From NCBI GenBank assembly GCA_963920525.1, contig OY986435.1, positions 99,032,115 through 99,096,114 on the forward strand: 64,000 nucleotides of DNA. The letters are read 5' to 3'. The stretch is from Dichetophora obliterata. Taxonomy: Eukaryota > Arthropoda > Insecta > Diptera > Sciomyzidae. The notes beneath the pieces were generated by a model. It did no database searches. It was not told the origin of the DNA and saw nothing but the letters and a program-made list of their open reading frames with translations. Below, piece by piece: positions 25,616-58,899 of this stretch (position 1 is the stretch's first letter; the number at the start of each line of letters is the position of its first letter). The position numbers and the translations under genes were made by a program.

Positions 25616-26837
25616 TAAGAAGTTTAGAAATACCAGAAATTTTTGCATTTAAATAAGCAGAAATAAATAGACACGTCTATAGTTAAAAATTTTGCATTTA
25701 TTGTCTTTGTTTCAAAACTATAACAAATAAATAACCCAAGTAGAATTTTGCGACCACAGGTTACTTAATACACATTTTTACATGACGACGTTGCAGAGAT
25801 ACCTATTTGGATAATATTTTATGGAAAAAGTTTGTAAAAATTCCTATTTGTAAAAATTCCTATTCTTAAATAAAGCCTTCAATGTGACTTTCCTTTTTAA
25901 TACTATTTTACCACTAGGTCACGGAATGTTGTAACGATTTATCAAGTTTTACCTTTAAAAAATGCATCACTCAACTGTAAGGACTAAAATTCCTACGTAA
26001 TTTTATCCCCACATGACTTCTTACTTTTATTTCCATTTTCAGTACACCTGTGAGCTCACGACTGGGTCGAGCACCGGTACAAAAGAGAGCAACTGCAACC
26101 CCGTAGGGATTGCAACGGTTCGACGGCGTAACATGTCGAAGCATTACCCCAAGCATAAGCAAGTGTGGCGGGTGTGACCTACACGAATATATATATGAGT
26201 TAGAATTAAGGGTAATGAATTCAAATTATACCCCATATTGTTCATTGAAACATCATTTATCCTACCTCGATGGTAGCAATAAATATAAGAAGAAATAACT
26301 TGCGTAAATGTAAGTGAGTTTGCGGGTTTTATTTATAATATTAGTGAAGGCATGGTGTCTTCTAAACAGCGGAGGCGAGTAGACCATCTACCAGTTGTTT
26401 GAGACATTAAGGTAGATATTCTAACCCGCCTGTGGAAATAAATATAGGTAATAAAATTATAGAATAAGAAGTTAAGATTTCCTTATATTTAGTTAGAATA
26501 CATTTTACTACGGGGTAGTTTTATACACCCAAATTTATTTAGTTTAAGCAACCAGCGATATACGGCTAGAAATGTCTTAGGTACTCCCATTTAACATTTA
26601 GGTATTCCACATAGGTTACCCAGGTCTGGTTCAGTGCTAAGTTTTCCTACAGGGACAGTCTACTCGTGTTAATGTGTTTTTATTTCTTTTCTTTGCATGT
26701 TTTGACGTAACGGCTCCAAGCTAACAATCATATAGCTAGCTAAACAAACGGCAACATCACGCGATATTCTAGAATAAACCACGAGAGAGAGAAACCACCG
26801 ACAAGACCAACAGTAACCTACGCGTGAGAGGAGGAGT

Positions 26838-26848
26838 ATTTAAGCCAG
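26838..26848 (+). promoter_or_regulatory. TATA-like box of unit A
   Basis: GTATTTAAG in a GAGGAG context, about 220 bp before the ACGTC block. Placement is by resemblance only. Confidence 0.35.
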
Positions 26849-27059
26849 AACTTAGCATCGAGGAAGTTTTGTTACAACTGTGGAAATAGACAGACGTGCC
26901 GGTCTGCAACCAGTGTACGCTAGTTTTCGTTGGTGGCAGACATAGCGCTGCCCATACCAACCGTCGACTTCAGAAGCAGCAACGAAGATAATATTTTACA
27001 GTATCACCGTCGCTAAGCGGAAACGTAGCATACATACGCTATAGTGCAGTAGCGACGAC

Positions 27060-27480
27060 ATTTACCACTTGCGGACGTCGTCAACTACGCCAACGTCGAT
27101 TTAAATACGTCCACAGCAGCAAGATACGTCAGCGTCGCTCAATACGTCCACGTCGATCTAAGACGTCAACGGCAGCAAGATACGTCAACGTCGCTTAATA
27201 CGTCCACGTCGATTTAAATACGGCAACAGCAGTAAGATACGTCAGCGTCGCTCAATACGTCCACGTCGATCTAAGACGTCAACGGCAGCGAGATACGTCA
27301 ACGTCACTTAATACGTCCACGTCGATTTAAATGCGTCAACAGCAGTAAGATTCGTCAACGTCGCTCAATACGTCCACGTCGATCTAATACGTCAACAGCA
27401 GCAAGATACGTCAACGTCGCCAAAAGACGTCTGCGTCGAGTTAATACGCCGACTTCAGCCGAATACGTCGACAGTAACAG
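27060..27480 (+). repeat. ACGTC-rich tandem repeat of unit A
   Basis: About seven units of roughly 58-60 bp, each with ACGTCAACG or ACGTCCACGTCGAT and a GCAGCAAGATACGTC segment. GATCTAAGACG and GATTTAAATACG variants alternate, giving a dimeric period near 118 bp. CG-rich and non-coding, within AT-rich surroundings. Confidence 0.85.
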
Positions 27481-28084
27481 CGCTTTGACCACCGCAGCAG
27501 CGACTACAGCAGCAGCGAACGTAGCGTATACTCCAGCAGCTCCGAGGACAGCCGGATAGCAACGTAACTAGTATCCCATTCTTTATTTTATTTTATTTAA
27601 TCATTATCATATGATATTATAATAACTTTTTATGCTAAGTATCATTAAAAATTATAGTGAAGGATTTCCTATATAATTTCGTTTCATCTCATTTAGCGAT
27701 TCATTTAGTTAGAGATTTCGTATAGCTAGTTTTAGGAATTTAATCAATTAAATACCTACTAGATTATCTCAACCCAATATTTAATAATAATTTCGTATTA
27801 TTAAAAATAATCATGATCAGATAATGTTTTCTACATAATTTAGGTTCACCTTATTTAGCGTTTTCTTTAGTTATAGATTTCATATAGCTAGGTTTAGGGA
27901 TTTGCTCAATTAAAGTTCTATTAGATAATCTCAAACAAACTTTTTAAAAATATTTTCTTTTGCACTCGCGGAGTGCCTCCTCACGTTATCGCGAAGCGTA
28001 CTTCCAGAAATCGGTTGCAATCACCCAACCAAGCCAGCAGTAGGTCAAATAGAGGTTGTGAAGAGTTCTAGGGTAACTTTGAGT

Positions 28085-28420
28085 CAAAAGCGGGCGATTC
28101 AGGGGGCCTAACCCCAATCGCTTTTGAACTCCATTCTCCCATCTCGGGACCAGGTCATTTAATACACCAGTAGAGTCTCTAGGGCTAGGTACCTGGCGAG
28201 GAGTTTTGATCAAGGCCGGGCGAATGGGCCTAACCATACTCGGGTTTGGTCAAACGCTCTGCAAATCGGAGTTGGGCGAATGGGCCTAACCATACTCGAT
28301 TTCGACTAGCCACCCCTCCAATCGGACCCGGGCGAATGGGCCTAACCATACTCGGGGTCGATTACTGCGTGCCTCGATCGGAGTCGAGCGAATGGGCCTA
28401 ACCATACTCGGCTTCCGACC
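28085..28420 (+). ncRNA. Tandem covarying RNA-hairpin array A
   Basis: Four hairpins with 56-bp spacing (centres about 28230, 28286, 28342, 28398) and a diverged one centred at 28108. The four share the loop CGAATGGGCCTAACCATA, which can itself form AUGG-GCCUAA-CCAU. The outer stems differ in sequence but pair: 15 of 16 at 28205-28254, 11 of 11 at 28266-28305, 11 of 12 at 28321-28362, and about 11 with one bulge at 28377-28418. The diverged unit keeps the GCCTAA loop but has GGGG/CCCC instead of AUGG/CCAU, and CAAAAGCG/CGCTTTTG outside. G-U pairs occur on the plus strand, so the transcript is likely plus. Confidence 0.7.
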
Positions 28421-28944
28421 AGCCACGTTTTAGCCTGAAATCATTCCTGAGAATGTTCGTATAGAGAGTTGTACCTTAGGACCGAGCGGTGTAGAGAATA
28501 GGACCAAAAGGTACCAAGGGCACCAAAGGGCACCAACATAGCAGGGGTTAGTCCAGATGAAACTCGTGTTTTCCCAACGCCAAGAGACGGTGACACTATT
28601 GTGACATACAACGTATAACGTGAGAAGGCTACTCTAACTAAGTAACGAGATAAGGTTATTTCTTACGGAATAACCGGCGAGAAAGTAGTTTAGGACTAGG
28701 TTTAAAAGAAGAGTAAACACCTAGGTAAGAAGACACTAGGGTACTAATTAAAACAAAAAGATTTTGTAGTCGAAATATATTATAACTATGTAAAATCATA
28801 ATACATGGAACTAGGCTAATACTTATTAATTATACTAGACAATAGGTTCACCAATACATACTTGAGACTCGCCTTCAGCGAAGTCAGGTACTAGCAGATA
28901 AGTCATTTTTTGTAAATTAGATTTAAGCGTATTAGCGATTGTTA

Positions 28945-28950
28945 AATAAA
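28945..28950 (+). promoter_or_regulatory. Poly(A) signal of unit A
   Basis: AATAAA about 120 bp before the right end of the LTR-like unit, as expected for an R/U5 boundary. Confidence 0.45.
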
Positions 28951-29085
28951 CATCATTGAATTCTAATACTGCTGTCTTTTGATTTGGTGTCCGTTTATTT
29001 TTATAAACGAACAAATATTTGCAACGGACCCTGGATCCGGCGAGCGCGTCCTCGGCCGGAATTTGGGTCGTTACACAACTATGGA

Positions 29086-55932: not shown

Positions 55933-56424
55933 GATCTATGTAAACGCATGGTTAGTTGTTATGTCTTGTGTTTGTCCCTGAGCCCAACCCATATTATGGT
56001 GGGTAAATTTTTCTCCCTTTTGGTTTTTTTTTTGGACCACTTCTATCGATATCTTTGAGATATTTCAATGATATTTGGATTGGTTCTTAAAATGATATAT
56101 TGCGGAGAATGTGTGAAAAAGCTGTAGTAGCTGAACTCTATTGTTATTGCATGTTAAAAAAAAAATACCAGGAAACTGTTGGAGCCTAAATTGATTCGAG
56201 ATAAAGAAGTAAACAAAGAACAAAACAAAGAAGTAAACAAATAACGTAGCTATTGTTATTAAAGAAGTAAACAAAGAACACAACAAACAAATCTTTGCAG
56301 TGTAATAACCCAAAATTCTGCGAATTTTAGGTCTACATGCTAACGCCATAACTCTCTTCTTTTTTAGCGATCATTCATTATTAATCTATTTACGGCTGGG
56401 ATGCCAAGCAGCGGAGACTGGGGT
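55933..56424 (+). other. LINE 3' UTR and flank
   Basis: The LINE 3' UTR probably runs to about 56050 (CCATATTATGGTGGG, T-run). At 56205-56290 there are three copies of AAGAAGTAAACAAAGAACA-like units in direct order. Nothing else recognised. Confidence 0.5.
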
Positions 56425-56595
56425 CTTCGCTAATGCCCATATTACACGATGCTCGTTTGCTCGGCGTGCACATGGCCGTGTAATATGGTTGTTATTGTAT
56501 TCTCCAAAATTTTTGACAGTTTCGCATTGGAAGCAACAACAAAATTATCTGCTCGTCGAGCAAACGAGCATCGTGTAATATAGGCATAAGCGGAG
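56425..56595. mobile_element. Foldback MITE with about 38-bp arms
   Basis: The left arm contains ATATTACACGATGCTCGTTT followed by GCTCG; the right arm is its reverse complement, ending at about 56585. Including outer bases (TCGCTAATGCC versus CCGCTTATGCC) the arms reach about 38 bp with four or five mismatches. The element is about 170 bp long and can fold into a long hairpin. No target duplication identified and no ORF. Confidence 0.8.
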
Positions 56596-57247
56596 CCAGC
56601 CACCGAAGAATAGAATCACCGATTAGAGCAAACAGCAACAATCTAAGCAGTTATTCCCATAGAGGCTCTAGGGGAAGCCTAGGAGTAGCTTTGCGATCTA
56701 AGCAGGTTGTCGGCACTGTAGAAGTGCTTACGACACCAGGGTAGGGAGAGTAGGTGAGGCCTATGGGCCGGTGGGCAGGGCACGCGAGGACACCCCACCC
56801 AACGATGGTAATTATCGTCATTTAGCCTACACACCCGAAAAGCTACAATTATATAACTCAAGCGTAATATAATTGTGGATAAACAAGTATATAGATTATG
56901 TATTTGAATTAATTAAGTTATAGTTTTTAAGTATATACGTAGGTTAAGTCTTATAAGTTATGATAATAAAGTTATTGAAATATAACTAGAATATAATCAT
57001 AGTTTTATTTAATGATGGTTCGTGGTAATAGGTAGTCTTTTCCCTACTGGGTAACCTTTTAGTTATTGCATCAATAATATATTGTCTTATTTTATTTTCA
57101 TGGTCACGAGCCGATAGCGGCTATAGGACAACGGGACTCTAGCACGAGCTAGTTATTGCAAGCAGCAGGTGTCTTCACAAAGACTAGCCAGAACGGGAGA
57201 ATGGCGTGAGGGCAACAACAATGCTCATACATCGAGTCACGTCATAT

Positions 57248-57262
57248 GGAAATATATAAGAA
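57248..57262 (+). promoter_or_regulatory. TATA-like box of unit B
   Basis: GGAAATATATAAGAAC, about 340 bp before the GTCGAC block. Placement by resemblance only. Confidence 0.35.
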
Positions 57263-57589
57263 CTGTATAACGCACAAACAGAAGGAACATAAAGAGACTA
57301 AGAAGCTACCTCAGAGGGAAAAACCTTACATCATGTTGAGTCTGGTGTGAGCCATCGCGGAGTTAAGTTATATTCTAAAATCATCTCACAACAGAAGTAG
57401 CGCGACTTTCATTCGGTAACGTGAACAGTCAAGTTGGGCAGTATTCAAACGTGGGATCTACGTCAGCGTAGACAGCAAACTATCACCGTGCGCCAGCTGT
57501 ACTCGACAGCGATATCAATAACGTCGTCCAGCGTCGATCGTTTTTCTTCAGGTCGAACAGTCGCCAGGGAGTACGGCGACGTCGACAGC

Positions 57590-57770
57590 GTTGACCCATC
57601 GCGCAGCCAGCGTCCACAGAGGTGCCATACGGCCGCGTAGTCGCAGCAGCACAGCCACCGCCAACAGAGACGTCGACAGAGGCGTCGACAGAAAATTCGG
57701 CAGAGAGGTCGACAGATATGCAGGCAGAGACGTCGGCAGATAAGTTGGCAGAGAGGCCAGCTGCATCACC
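57590..57770 (+). repeat. GTCGACAG/GGCAGAGA repeat block of unit B
   Basis: Repeated short units such as GACGTCGACAGAGG, GGCGTCGACAG, GAGGTCGACAG and GACGTCGGCAG at intervals near 18-22 bp. CG-rich inside AT-rich DNA, comparable in position to the ACGTC block of unit A. Confidence 0.7.
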
Positions 57771-58069
57771 TTAGCAGTGCAATCCACACAGCGACCGCAG
57801 CAGAGGAGCTACTATATACGTAACCATAAAGAGGAGACCGGTATCACGTATCATTAGAGTTATTTAGTATTTTATTTTATTTAAAATAAATATAATTTCC
57901 CTTAATAGTAAGTTTATAATATCGTTTACACATAATCGGTGCTTATTAGAGTGGTTCAGCTGCGTGAATAGGAATTGGTCCTAAGAATACGCGTTGAAAG
58001 TATAATATTAGTGATAACAAACATCTGAGCGCAAATAACCGCTAAGATCCTTAATCCTCCCCGTGAAAC

Positions 58070-58521
58070 TGAGGGTGAGCGTAGTCGAATCTCGTTCATC
58101 ATCAGCCTCATCCTATCCCCCGTGTTGTAGTCGAATCTCATCTCGGTTCCTACTTAGATTTTTCCTTCATGTATTGATGGTGAGTGTTGTCGAATCTCAC
58201 GCATCATCAATAACTTCCAATTCCCCGGGGCGTGGTCAAATCCCACCCCGTATCCTATCCTACATACTTCTTTCGTGCTTTGGTGGTGAGAGTAGTCGAA
58301 TCTCATTCATCATCAACCACCTCTAAGCCCTGGGGTGTAGTTGAATCTCACCCCATCCTTTCGTCCTACCCCAAATATAGCGTATTAAGCGAAGTAGAAT
58401 AACAACTCTCTGGCGGGAGTCTGCCTGAATTCAACCCCTTACCTGGCTATGAGTTTAGTCGAATCTCACTCATCAGTTAAATACCTTATCCTACCCCTGG
58501 GTGTAGTCGAATCTCATTCAG
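58070..58521 (+). ncRNA. Tandem covarying RNA-hairpin array B
   Basis: Eight hairpins around the loop TAG-TCGAATCT (variants TGG-TCAAATCC and TAG-TTGAATCT). Paired positions counted from the loop: 58070-58104, 11 of 12; 58120-58146, 6 of 8; 58175-58209, 11 of 12; 58226-58250, about 6 of 7; 58281-58315, 11 of 12; 58331-58355, 7 of 7; 58449-58473, 6 of 7; 58497-58521, 7 of 7. Long-armed (TGATGGTGAG type) and short-armed (GGGGTG type) hairpins alternate, giving a 105-106 bp dimer. Stems vary while pairing is kept, including G-U pairs on the plus strand. The stretch 58381-58440 lacks the loop motif. Confidence 0.7.
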
Positions 58522-58899
58522 CTCCTCCAGAACGAATTCAACGAATTTCGCCAGAGGCGAATCGCTAAAGCGAACTATATTAGCGACCAATTCCATAATC
58601 ACAAAGCATGTTAAAATTAATATAATTTGCTACATAGATTTTGCAATGATTTTTAATTAATATTTCATTCTTTAATATCAAATCATTCGTAAGTTTGAAT
58701 AACCAGTACAATCTTCAGATAATAGAGTTAATAAGATAAGATTTATAGTGCGTTTATTTATTTATTTCAGTCAATGAACCAAGTTTTTACAGACTATACA
58801 GAGTTTATATAAAAAAACTTAAATTATTAAGGTAAATAAGGCATTACTTTAAAAATAACTGTTTAGTAATTGCTTCATAGTTAATTTAGATACAGAAAA

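What the first reader, a model, noticed from the sequence alone, without database searches (positions are those of the whole stretch)
28085..28420. Second hairpin array with a different conserved loop (array A)
Four units at an exact 56-bp spacing share CGAATGGGCCTAACCATA, itself able to form AUGG-GCCUAA-CCAU. Outer stems of 11-16 bp differ in sequence but pair at 15/16, 11/11, 11/12 and about 11 positions, using many G-U pairs on the plus strand. A fifth diverged unit at 28085-28126 keeps the GCCTAA hexaloop but swaps AUGG/CCAU for GGGG/CCCC and has its own perfect CAAAAGCG/CGCTTTTG stem, a double compensatory change. Ordinary tandem duplication followed by drift would not preserve pairing this way.
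Basis: partly seen in the sequence, partly recalled or inferred. Interest (0 to 1): 0.88.

Follow-up and report, generated by a model that had tools for sequence, protein, structure and literature searches.

The report
RNA hairpin array in retrotransposon LTR
The repeated hairpins appear to be a selected RNA structure inside the long terminal repeat of an insect-type retrotransposon, perhaps a row of docking sites for a protein that handles the element's RNA, and a related element family has a similar row with a different loop.

Summary
Four units at 56-nt spacing, plus a diverged fifth upstream, can form hairpins with an AUGG-GCCUAA-CCAU tip on stems that differ in sequence. It is 1.2-1.55 kb downstream of a predicted start and upstream of a likely poly(A) signal.

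For selection on RNA: diversity is lowest in the tips and highest in the flanks; the whole array is unusually stable on the sense strand only; stem pairing exceeds a tree-aware null, 3/500. Against: no single pair is significant, many private changes break pairs, and in the whole-array fold U2 and U4 pair with each other.

Array B in this window has the same design with another loop, in the LTR of a second family whose pol is 77% identical. Best explanation: a multivalent cis-acting RNA element, most likely a Gag docking or packaging platform (inferred); export or 3'-end processing is the main rival. Genome-wide searches for further families did not complete.

The parts
25976..29075 (+). Solo LTR (3100 bp, TGTAAGG...GTTACA) of a Ty3/gypsy retrotransposon that contains array A
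   Evidence: Homology to other copies starts at 25971-25976 and ends at 29075. In full-length relatives the LTR is preceded by a purine tract (L009 5677-5686) and followed by a tRNA-Lys-type PBS (L004 2371; the tRNA name is recalled).
25972..25975 (.). Target-site duplication CAAC, left
29076..29079 (.). Target-site duplication CAAC, right
26837..26843 (+). TATA-like box (TATTTAA; TATATAA in relatives); predicted start about 30 nt downstream
   Evidence: start site inferred
27075..27470 (+). ACGTC(A/C)ACGTCG-type short-period tandem repeats in the presumed transcribed part of the LTR
28085..28126 (+). Hairpin unit U0 (GGGG-GCCTAA-CCCC tip)
   Evidence: found by model R1, E 5e-6, although not used to build it
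28207..28252 (+). Hairpin unit U1
28263..28308 (+). Hairpin unit U2 (alternatively pairs with U4)
28319..28364 (+). Hairpin unit U3
28375..28420 (+). Hairpin unit U4 (alternatively pairs with U2)
28945..28950 (+). Likely poly(A) signal AATAAA, kept in L003 and in the C7 copies L004, L006, L008; a similar signal is in family B (L057)
   Evidence: role inferred
56301..58732 (+). LTR (3' end not found here) of a second Ty3/gypsy family, with hairpin array B
58070..58530 (+). Array B: eight copies of the 11-nt loop TAGTCGAATCT or close variants, flanked by pairing arms

Best explanation
Array A is a cis-acting RNA element in the long transcribed part (R, or R-U5 leader) of a Ty3/gypsy LTR retrotransposon. 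Five hairpins present the same small tip (4-bp stem plus GCCUAA loop; in U1-U4 on a CGA/A internal loop) on stems of differing sequence, so the tip is the recognised part and the stems are scaffolding. Shown: LTR context; sense-strand fold of the array; constraint centred on the tip; stem pairing above the null; the same design with another loop in a second family. Inferred: that the region is transcribed as R/leader, and that the row is a multivalent docking platform, most likely for the element's own Gag, marking genomic RNA for packaging or dimerisation; the loop would diverge between families with its protein. My split: selected RNA element in the LTR, 0.85; Gag docking or packaging in particular, about 0.4.
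For: LTR boundaries, TSD, purine tract and PBS. Forty scored dispersed copies, a lower bound. Mean diversity over 35 copies: apical stem 0.0125, hexaloop 0.023, U0 0.025, internal loop 0.041, lower stems 0.073, linkers 0.085, flanks 0.12-0.23. 132 of 142 cores exact. The three 75-nt bins over U1-U4 are 94-97% identical among three copies; the next four bins downstream are 74-86%. Strand asymmetry of both whole arrays. Lower-stem pairing 82.7% vs tree-aware null 71.5 +/- 4.3%, 3/500 (inner 11 pairs: 5/500); array B inner 7 pairs 83.1% vs 61.6 +/- 7.9%, 0/500 (13 pairs: 2/500). Within U2, pair 28267/28304 is CG, TG or TA in different copies. Gag ORF of family A with one CCHC motif by pattern, CRLCGQKGHLPRQC. 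Families A and B: pol 77% identical over 457 aa, Gag only 36% over 182 aa and poorly conserved around the knuckle, different loops; model R1 has no hit in 12 family-B loci.
Against: No transcript, probing or binding data. R/U5 borders are predicted only. No single pair is significant in the tree-aware covariation test. 16 of 28 private stem variants break pairs. In the whole-array fold U2 and U4 pair with each other. Other LTR bins are as conserved as the array (26700-26774, 27525-27599, 28950-29075). No CCHC match in the ORFs of at least 100 aa of the family-B pieces L056/L057, though that copy's gag is in pieces. Nothing ties the loop to Gag rather than to a host protein. The register was read from the same sequences that were then tested.
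Confidence: 0.45

Rival explanations
1. The array acts in nuclear export or 3'-end processing of the long transcript: an R-region element bound by an export adaptor, or folding that brings the AATAAA signal and cleavage site together, as described for the Rex-responsive element of HTLV-1.
For: Position between the predicted start and the likely poly(A) signal, so possibly at both RNA ends. Precedent in an LTR (PMC3504254, passages) and for export of retroelement RNA (PMC10309623, passages). The U2-U4 long-range pairing would fit a larger folded domain.
Against: Array A lies about 500 nt upstream of the AATAAA. No Rex-like adaptor was looked for or found. Repeated small tips fit multivalent protein binding better than one folding domain.
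Confidence: 0.25
2. A host RNA-binding protein (repressive or exploited) reads the loops, or the array aids translation across the very long leader.
For: In L087 the gag frame opens about 1.4 kb after the LTR end, so with R the leader would be about 3.6 kb unless spliced (inferred).
Against: Loops differ between two related families in the same host genome, less expected for one host protein.
Confidence: 0.15
3. A DNA-level array (transcription-factor or insulator sites) whose hairpins are incidental palindromic overlap.
For: Conserved 14-nt dyad core repeated at near-constant 56-bp spacing.
Against: The array fold is strand-asymmetric, although U4 alone is not; stems outside the core differ yet pair, often by G-U, which a DNA site would not require.
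Confidence: 0.08
4. Neutral tandem duplication with chance hairpins.
For: Another short-period repeat lies 0.6-1.0 kb upstream in the same LTR and also scores 8-9 of 10 flanking pairs in a loose scan; single-pair covariation is not significant.
Against: Shuffle tests, constraint gradient, pairing above null, conserved unit number and spacing, same design in family B.
Confidence: 0.05

Closest known systems
Retroviral packaging signals with stem-loops in the 5' leader (e.g. MMTV, FIV, MPMV; search listing and start of abstracts only)
   Same: Structured leader RNA; several stem-loops; recognised by Gag there
   Different: Here the hairpins are tandem repeats at near-fixed spacing inside the LTR itself, with an almost invariant tip and divergent stems; no binding data
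HTLV-1/-2 Rex-responsive element (PMC3504254, passages)
   Same: Structured RNA element in the U3/R or R/U5 part of an LTR
   Different: That is one stem-loop element of 226-254 nt bound by Rex; here a row of small hairpins with no known adaptor
Long R regions with conserved stem-loops (PMC3601003, passages)
   Same: Conservation in long R regions linked to stem-loops
   Different: [quoted passage not shown] no tandem same-loop array in the passages seen

Membership tests
Ty3/gypsy LTR retrotransposon (host element of the array) | LTR with TG...CA ends and short target-site duplication | tested here: met
   25976-29075, TSD CAAC
Ty3/gypsy LTR retrotransposon (host element of the array) | PBS after the 5' LTR and purine tract before the 3' LTR | tested here: met
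   L004 2371 TGGCGCCCGAACAGGGAC; L009 5677-5686
Ty3/gypsy LTR retrotransposon (host element of the array) | gag, then pol in the order RT-RNaseH-integrase | tested here: met
   in relatives. The window copy itself is a solo LTR without genes.
Osvaldo/Ulysses clade | Clade placement by pol tree | not tested
   Resemblance and the tRNA-Lys PBS are recalled leads only; named Drosophila proteins among the 120 listed pol relatives (of 5710) are 58-68% identical
Retroviral-type packaging signal (psi) | Present in genomic RNA; binds Gag; needed for encapsidation | not testable with these tools
   Only position and fold known
Rex/CTE-type export element | Binds an export adaptor and promotes export of unspliced RNA | not testable with these tools
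   No adaptor known
Known Rfam RNA family | Match at or above the gathering score | tested here: not met
   0 matches in the window; for the LTR two matches far below threshold and outside the array
microRNA cluster or long hairpin RNA | Long precursor stems and processed small RNAs | tested here: inconclusive
   Stems 9-16 pairs plus a 4-bp tip, short for U2-U4, borderline for U1; small RNAs not testable here

The most novel reading that the evidence does not exclude
A recurrent kind of retroelement RNA element: tandem hairpins in the R region that display one family-specific loop on drifting stems. The loop would be a replaceable specificity module that switches between related families together with its protein partner.
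Probability: 0.3. Interest if true: 0.72.

Novelty: new variant of a known kind. Interest (0 to 1): 0.5.

Why it matters
Packaging and export signals of insect Ty3/gypsy elements are poorly known, to my knowledge. Two related families with the same array design and different loops give ready-made test RNAs: comparing binding of each family's protein to both loops would show whether the loop sets specificity. The design also gives a signature (conserved loop, drifting stems, fixed period) for finding such elements in other LTRs.

Tried and rejected
Rejected: match to a known RNA family; tRNA/tmRNA (none); copies in viral contigs (7 stretches with one exact 16-mer match each, not arrays, taken as chance; no relatives of pol or of the Ulp1 ORF); array A lying in the 11-kb gypsy pair at 31396-53400 (it lies outside).

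Tests that gave little or spoke against: per-pair tree-aware covariation (best helix pairs E about 0.1 over 18 tests; highest observed score 31.5, mean null maximum 38.9; non-helix pairs score as high); shared versus private stem variants on 21 copy groups (10 of 14 vs 12 of 28 keep pairing, P = 0.11; three positions without a majority pair left out, U4 inner 9 pairs only, U0 outer stem included); the number of pair types is reached by 22 of 500 shuffles; pair types are reached by 3/500 (A), 22/500 (B inner 7), 176/500 (B 13 pairs), and one slid register of B by 10/200; whole-array fold pairs U2 with U4. A first de novo detector missed array A in the window; a loose one lists the plain GTCG repeat, array A and array B as the only regions, and does not separate the plain repeat well by pairing. 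Array-B counts take loops with up to 2 changes and so include 7 GAGTCGAATCG sites that do not pair.

Literature: searches listed no paper on tandem same-loop hairpins in an insect LTR; only open-licence papers are held and the terms were few.

Not achieved: genome-wide count of the core motif and a search for further families by PBS or LTR end.

Full report
What is there. The region 28085-28420 holds four hairpin units at 56-nt spacing and a diverged fifth unit upstream. Each has a 4-bp apical stem with the loop GCCUAA (AUGG/CCAU in U1-U4, GGGG/CCCC in U0). In U1-U4 the tip sits on a CGA/A internal loop above a lower stem of 9-16 pairs that differs between units. Shuffles support each unit (0 to 5 of 300 reach the energy), and the array as a whole is unusually stable only on the plus strand (plus z -3.3, 0/150; minus z -0.6, 41/150), although U4 alone is as stable on minus. 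When the whole array is folded, U0, U1 and U3 form as described, while U2 and U4 prefer to pair with each other, so the five-hairpin picture is not the predicted minimum. A covariance model from U1-U4-type units finds U0 in the window (E 5e-6) and in six relatives' loci (E 8e-6 to 2e-4).

Where it lies. The window comes from a 1.31-Gb genome (G000, C1:99032115-99096114), insect-like by its genes and retroelements as I know them. The array has 40 scored matches there (77 candidates, so a lower bound), 87-100% identical. Comparing copies shows homology from 25971-25976 to 29075. That stretch begins TGTAAGG and ends GTTACA, is 3100 bp long and is flanked by CAAC on both sides: a solo LTR. In full-length relatives a purine tract precedes the LTR, a primer binding site of tRNA-Lys type (recalled) follows it, gag has a CCHC motif, and pol has RT, RNase H and integrase. 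On contig C7 seven array copies follow each other at 11.8-11.9 kb, as tandem elements sharing LTRs would. A TATA-like box at 26837 is matched in L002 and the C7 copies L004, L006, L008 but not in L003; an AATAAA at 28945 is matched in L003 and the same C7 copies, while the LTR in L002 breaks off before it. This places the array in the transcribed R or leader part, 1.2-1.55 kb from the predicted start. The placement is inferred.

Is the structure selected? Over 35 copies (L042 dropped), mean diversity is 0.0125 in apical stems, 0.023 in the hexaloop, 0.025 in U0, 0.041 in the internal loop, 0.073 in lower stems, 0.085 in linkers and 0.12-0.23 outside. Cores are exact in 132 of 142 units and spacing is 56 nt in 97 of 106. 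Among three copies, the bins over U1-U4 are 94-97% identical and the four bins after them 74-86%, but a few other bins, near the promoter and the LTR 3' end, are as conserved. On 47 distinct units, 9 of 18 pairs show changes on both sides and 86% of cells pair; 0 of 500 shuffles reach these, 22 of 500 reach the number of pair types, and slid registers give at most 53%. Shuffles ignore relatedness, so I simulated substitutions on the unit tree. Lower-stem pairing is 82.7% against 71.5 +/- 4.3%, reached by 3 of 500 simulations; slid registers are not significant on this measure. Against this: in a per-pair version no pair reaches E < 0.05, as variation is mostly between four unit lineages. Stem variants found in one copy group break pairs in 16 of 28 cases, while those found in two or more groups keep pairing in 10 of 14 (P = 0.11), a trend only.

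A second family. Array B (58070-58530) lies in a different LTR family, also dispersed (42 match rows from 40 scored candidates). Its LTR starts TGTAA(G/T)AACCCAAAATTCTGCG, like TGTAAGGACTAAAATTCCTACG in family A, and near the 3' end both have GGTGTC..CGGACC and an AATAAA, by eye. Pol is 77% identical over 457 aa, Gag 36% over 182 aa. In 28 copies there are 196 units, 116 distinct; 134 of 196 loops are exactly TAGTCGAATCT. Inner-stem pairing is 83.1% against 61.6 +/- 7.9%, 0/500, and the whole array is again unusually stable on plus (0/150), not minus (27/150). Model R1 has no hit in 12 family-B loci. So the design (tandem hairpins, one loop, drifting stems, similar LTR position) is shared, and the loop is not.

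How it most likely works. Constraint on the tip and loop, with drift in stems that still pair, is what a protein-read loop on a scaffold would give. Repetition suggests multivalent binding. Because loops and Gag both differ strongly between families whose pol is close, I favour an element-encoded reader, most simply Gag, acting in packaging or dimerisation (about 0.4). Caution: Gag often evolves faster than pol anyway, and the family-B gag compared is in pieces without a CCHC match. R-region export or 3'-end roles (about 0.25), with precedent in HTLV-1 (PMC3504254, passages) and the statement that long R regions keep stem-loops (PMC3601003, passages), are the main rivals. No binding, expression or probing data exist here.

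Novelty. No Rfam family matches, and the literature searches listed nothing on such arrays in insect LTRs, within an open-licence library. Structured leaders of retroelements are known; a same-loop tandem array inside the LTR with family-specific loops looks like a new variant of that kind. The genome tool was busy for all search requests of allowed form, so the number of families with such arrays is unknown.

Noticed in passing
L009:3882-5678 (C7): The array-A element carries, between pol and the 3' LTR, a 598-aa ORF with a Ulp1/SENP-type peptidase domain (Pfam Peptidase_C48, E 1.7e-27; best solved relative SENP7). One homologue, a fungal protein, passed among 7990 scored candidates. In family B an ORF at the same place (L056:3477-4598 minus) matches only a 59-aa stretch after the peptidase (E 4e-5) and has no Pfam hit. 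A gypsy element with a SUMO-protease-like gene is unusual to my knowledge.
   Followed up: partly
window 58070-58530: Array B: eight copies of an 11-nt conserved loop with pairing arms in the LTR of a second gypsy family.
   Followed up: yes
window 28765-28774: TGTAGTCGAA in LTR A matches the loop region of array B; its core GTAGTCGAA is found in the C7 copies L004, L006 and L008 but not in L002 or L003; possibly a trace of a shared ancestor or chance.
   Followed up: no
window 27075-27470: 19/57/113-bp tandem repeats of ACGTC-A/C-ACGTCG type in LTR A; LTR B has shorter GTCG-rich repeats in a similar relative place (57664-57754).
   Followed up: no
window 31396-53400: Two 99.8% identical stretches of about 10.9 kb in tandem, carrying another gypsy element with gag and pol ORFs.
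   Followed up: no
G000 C7:12168401-12239720: Seven copies of array A at 11.8-11.9 kb spacing: probably a tandem run of elements.
   Followed up: partly
window 56425-56595: Inverted repeat with 49-nt arms and 73 nt between, inside LTR B and missing from the family copies L056 and L057: a MITE-like insert.
   Followed up: no
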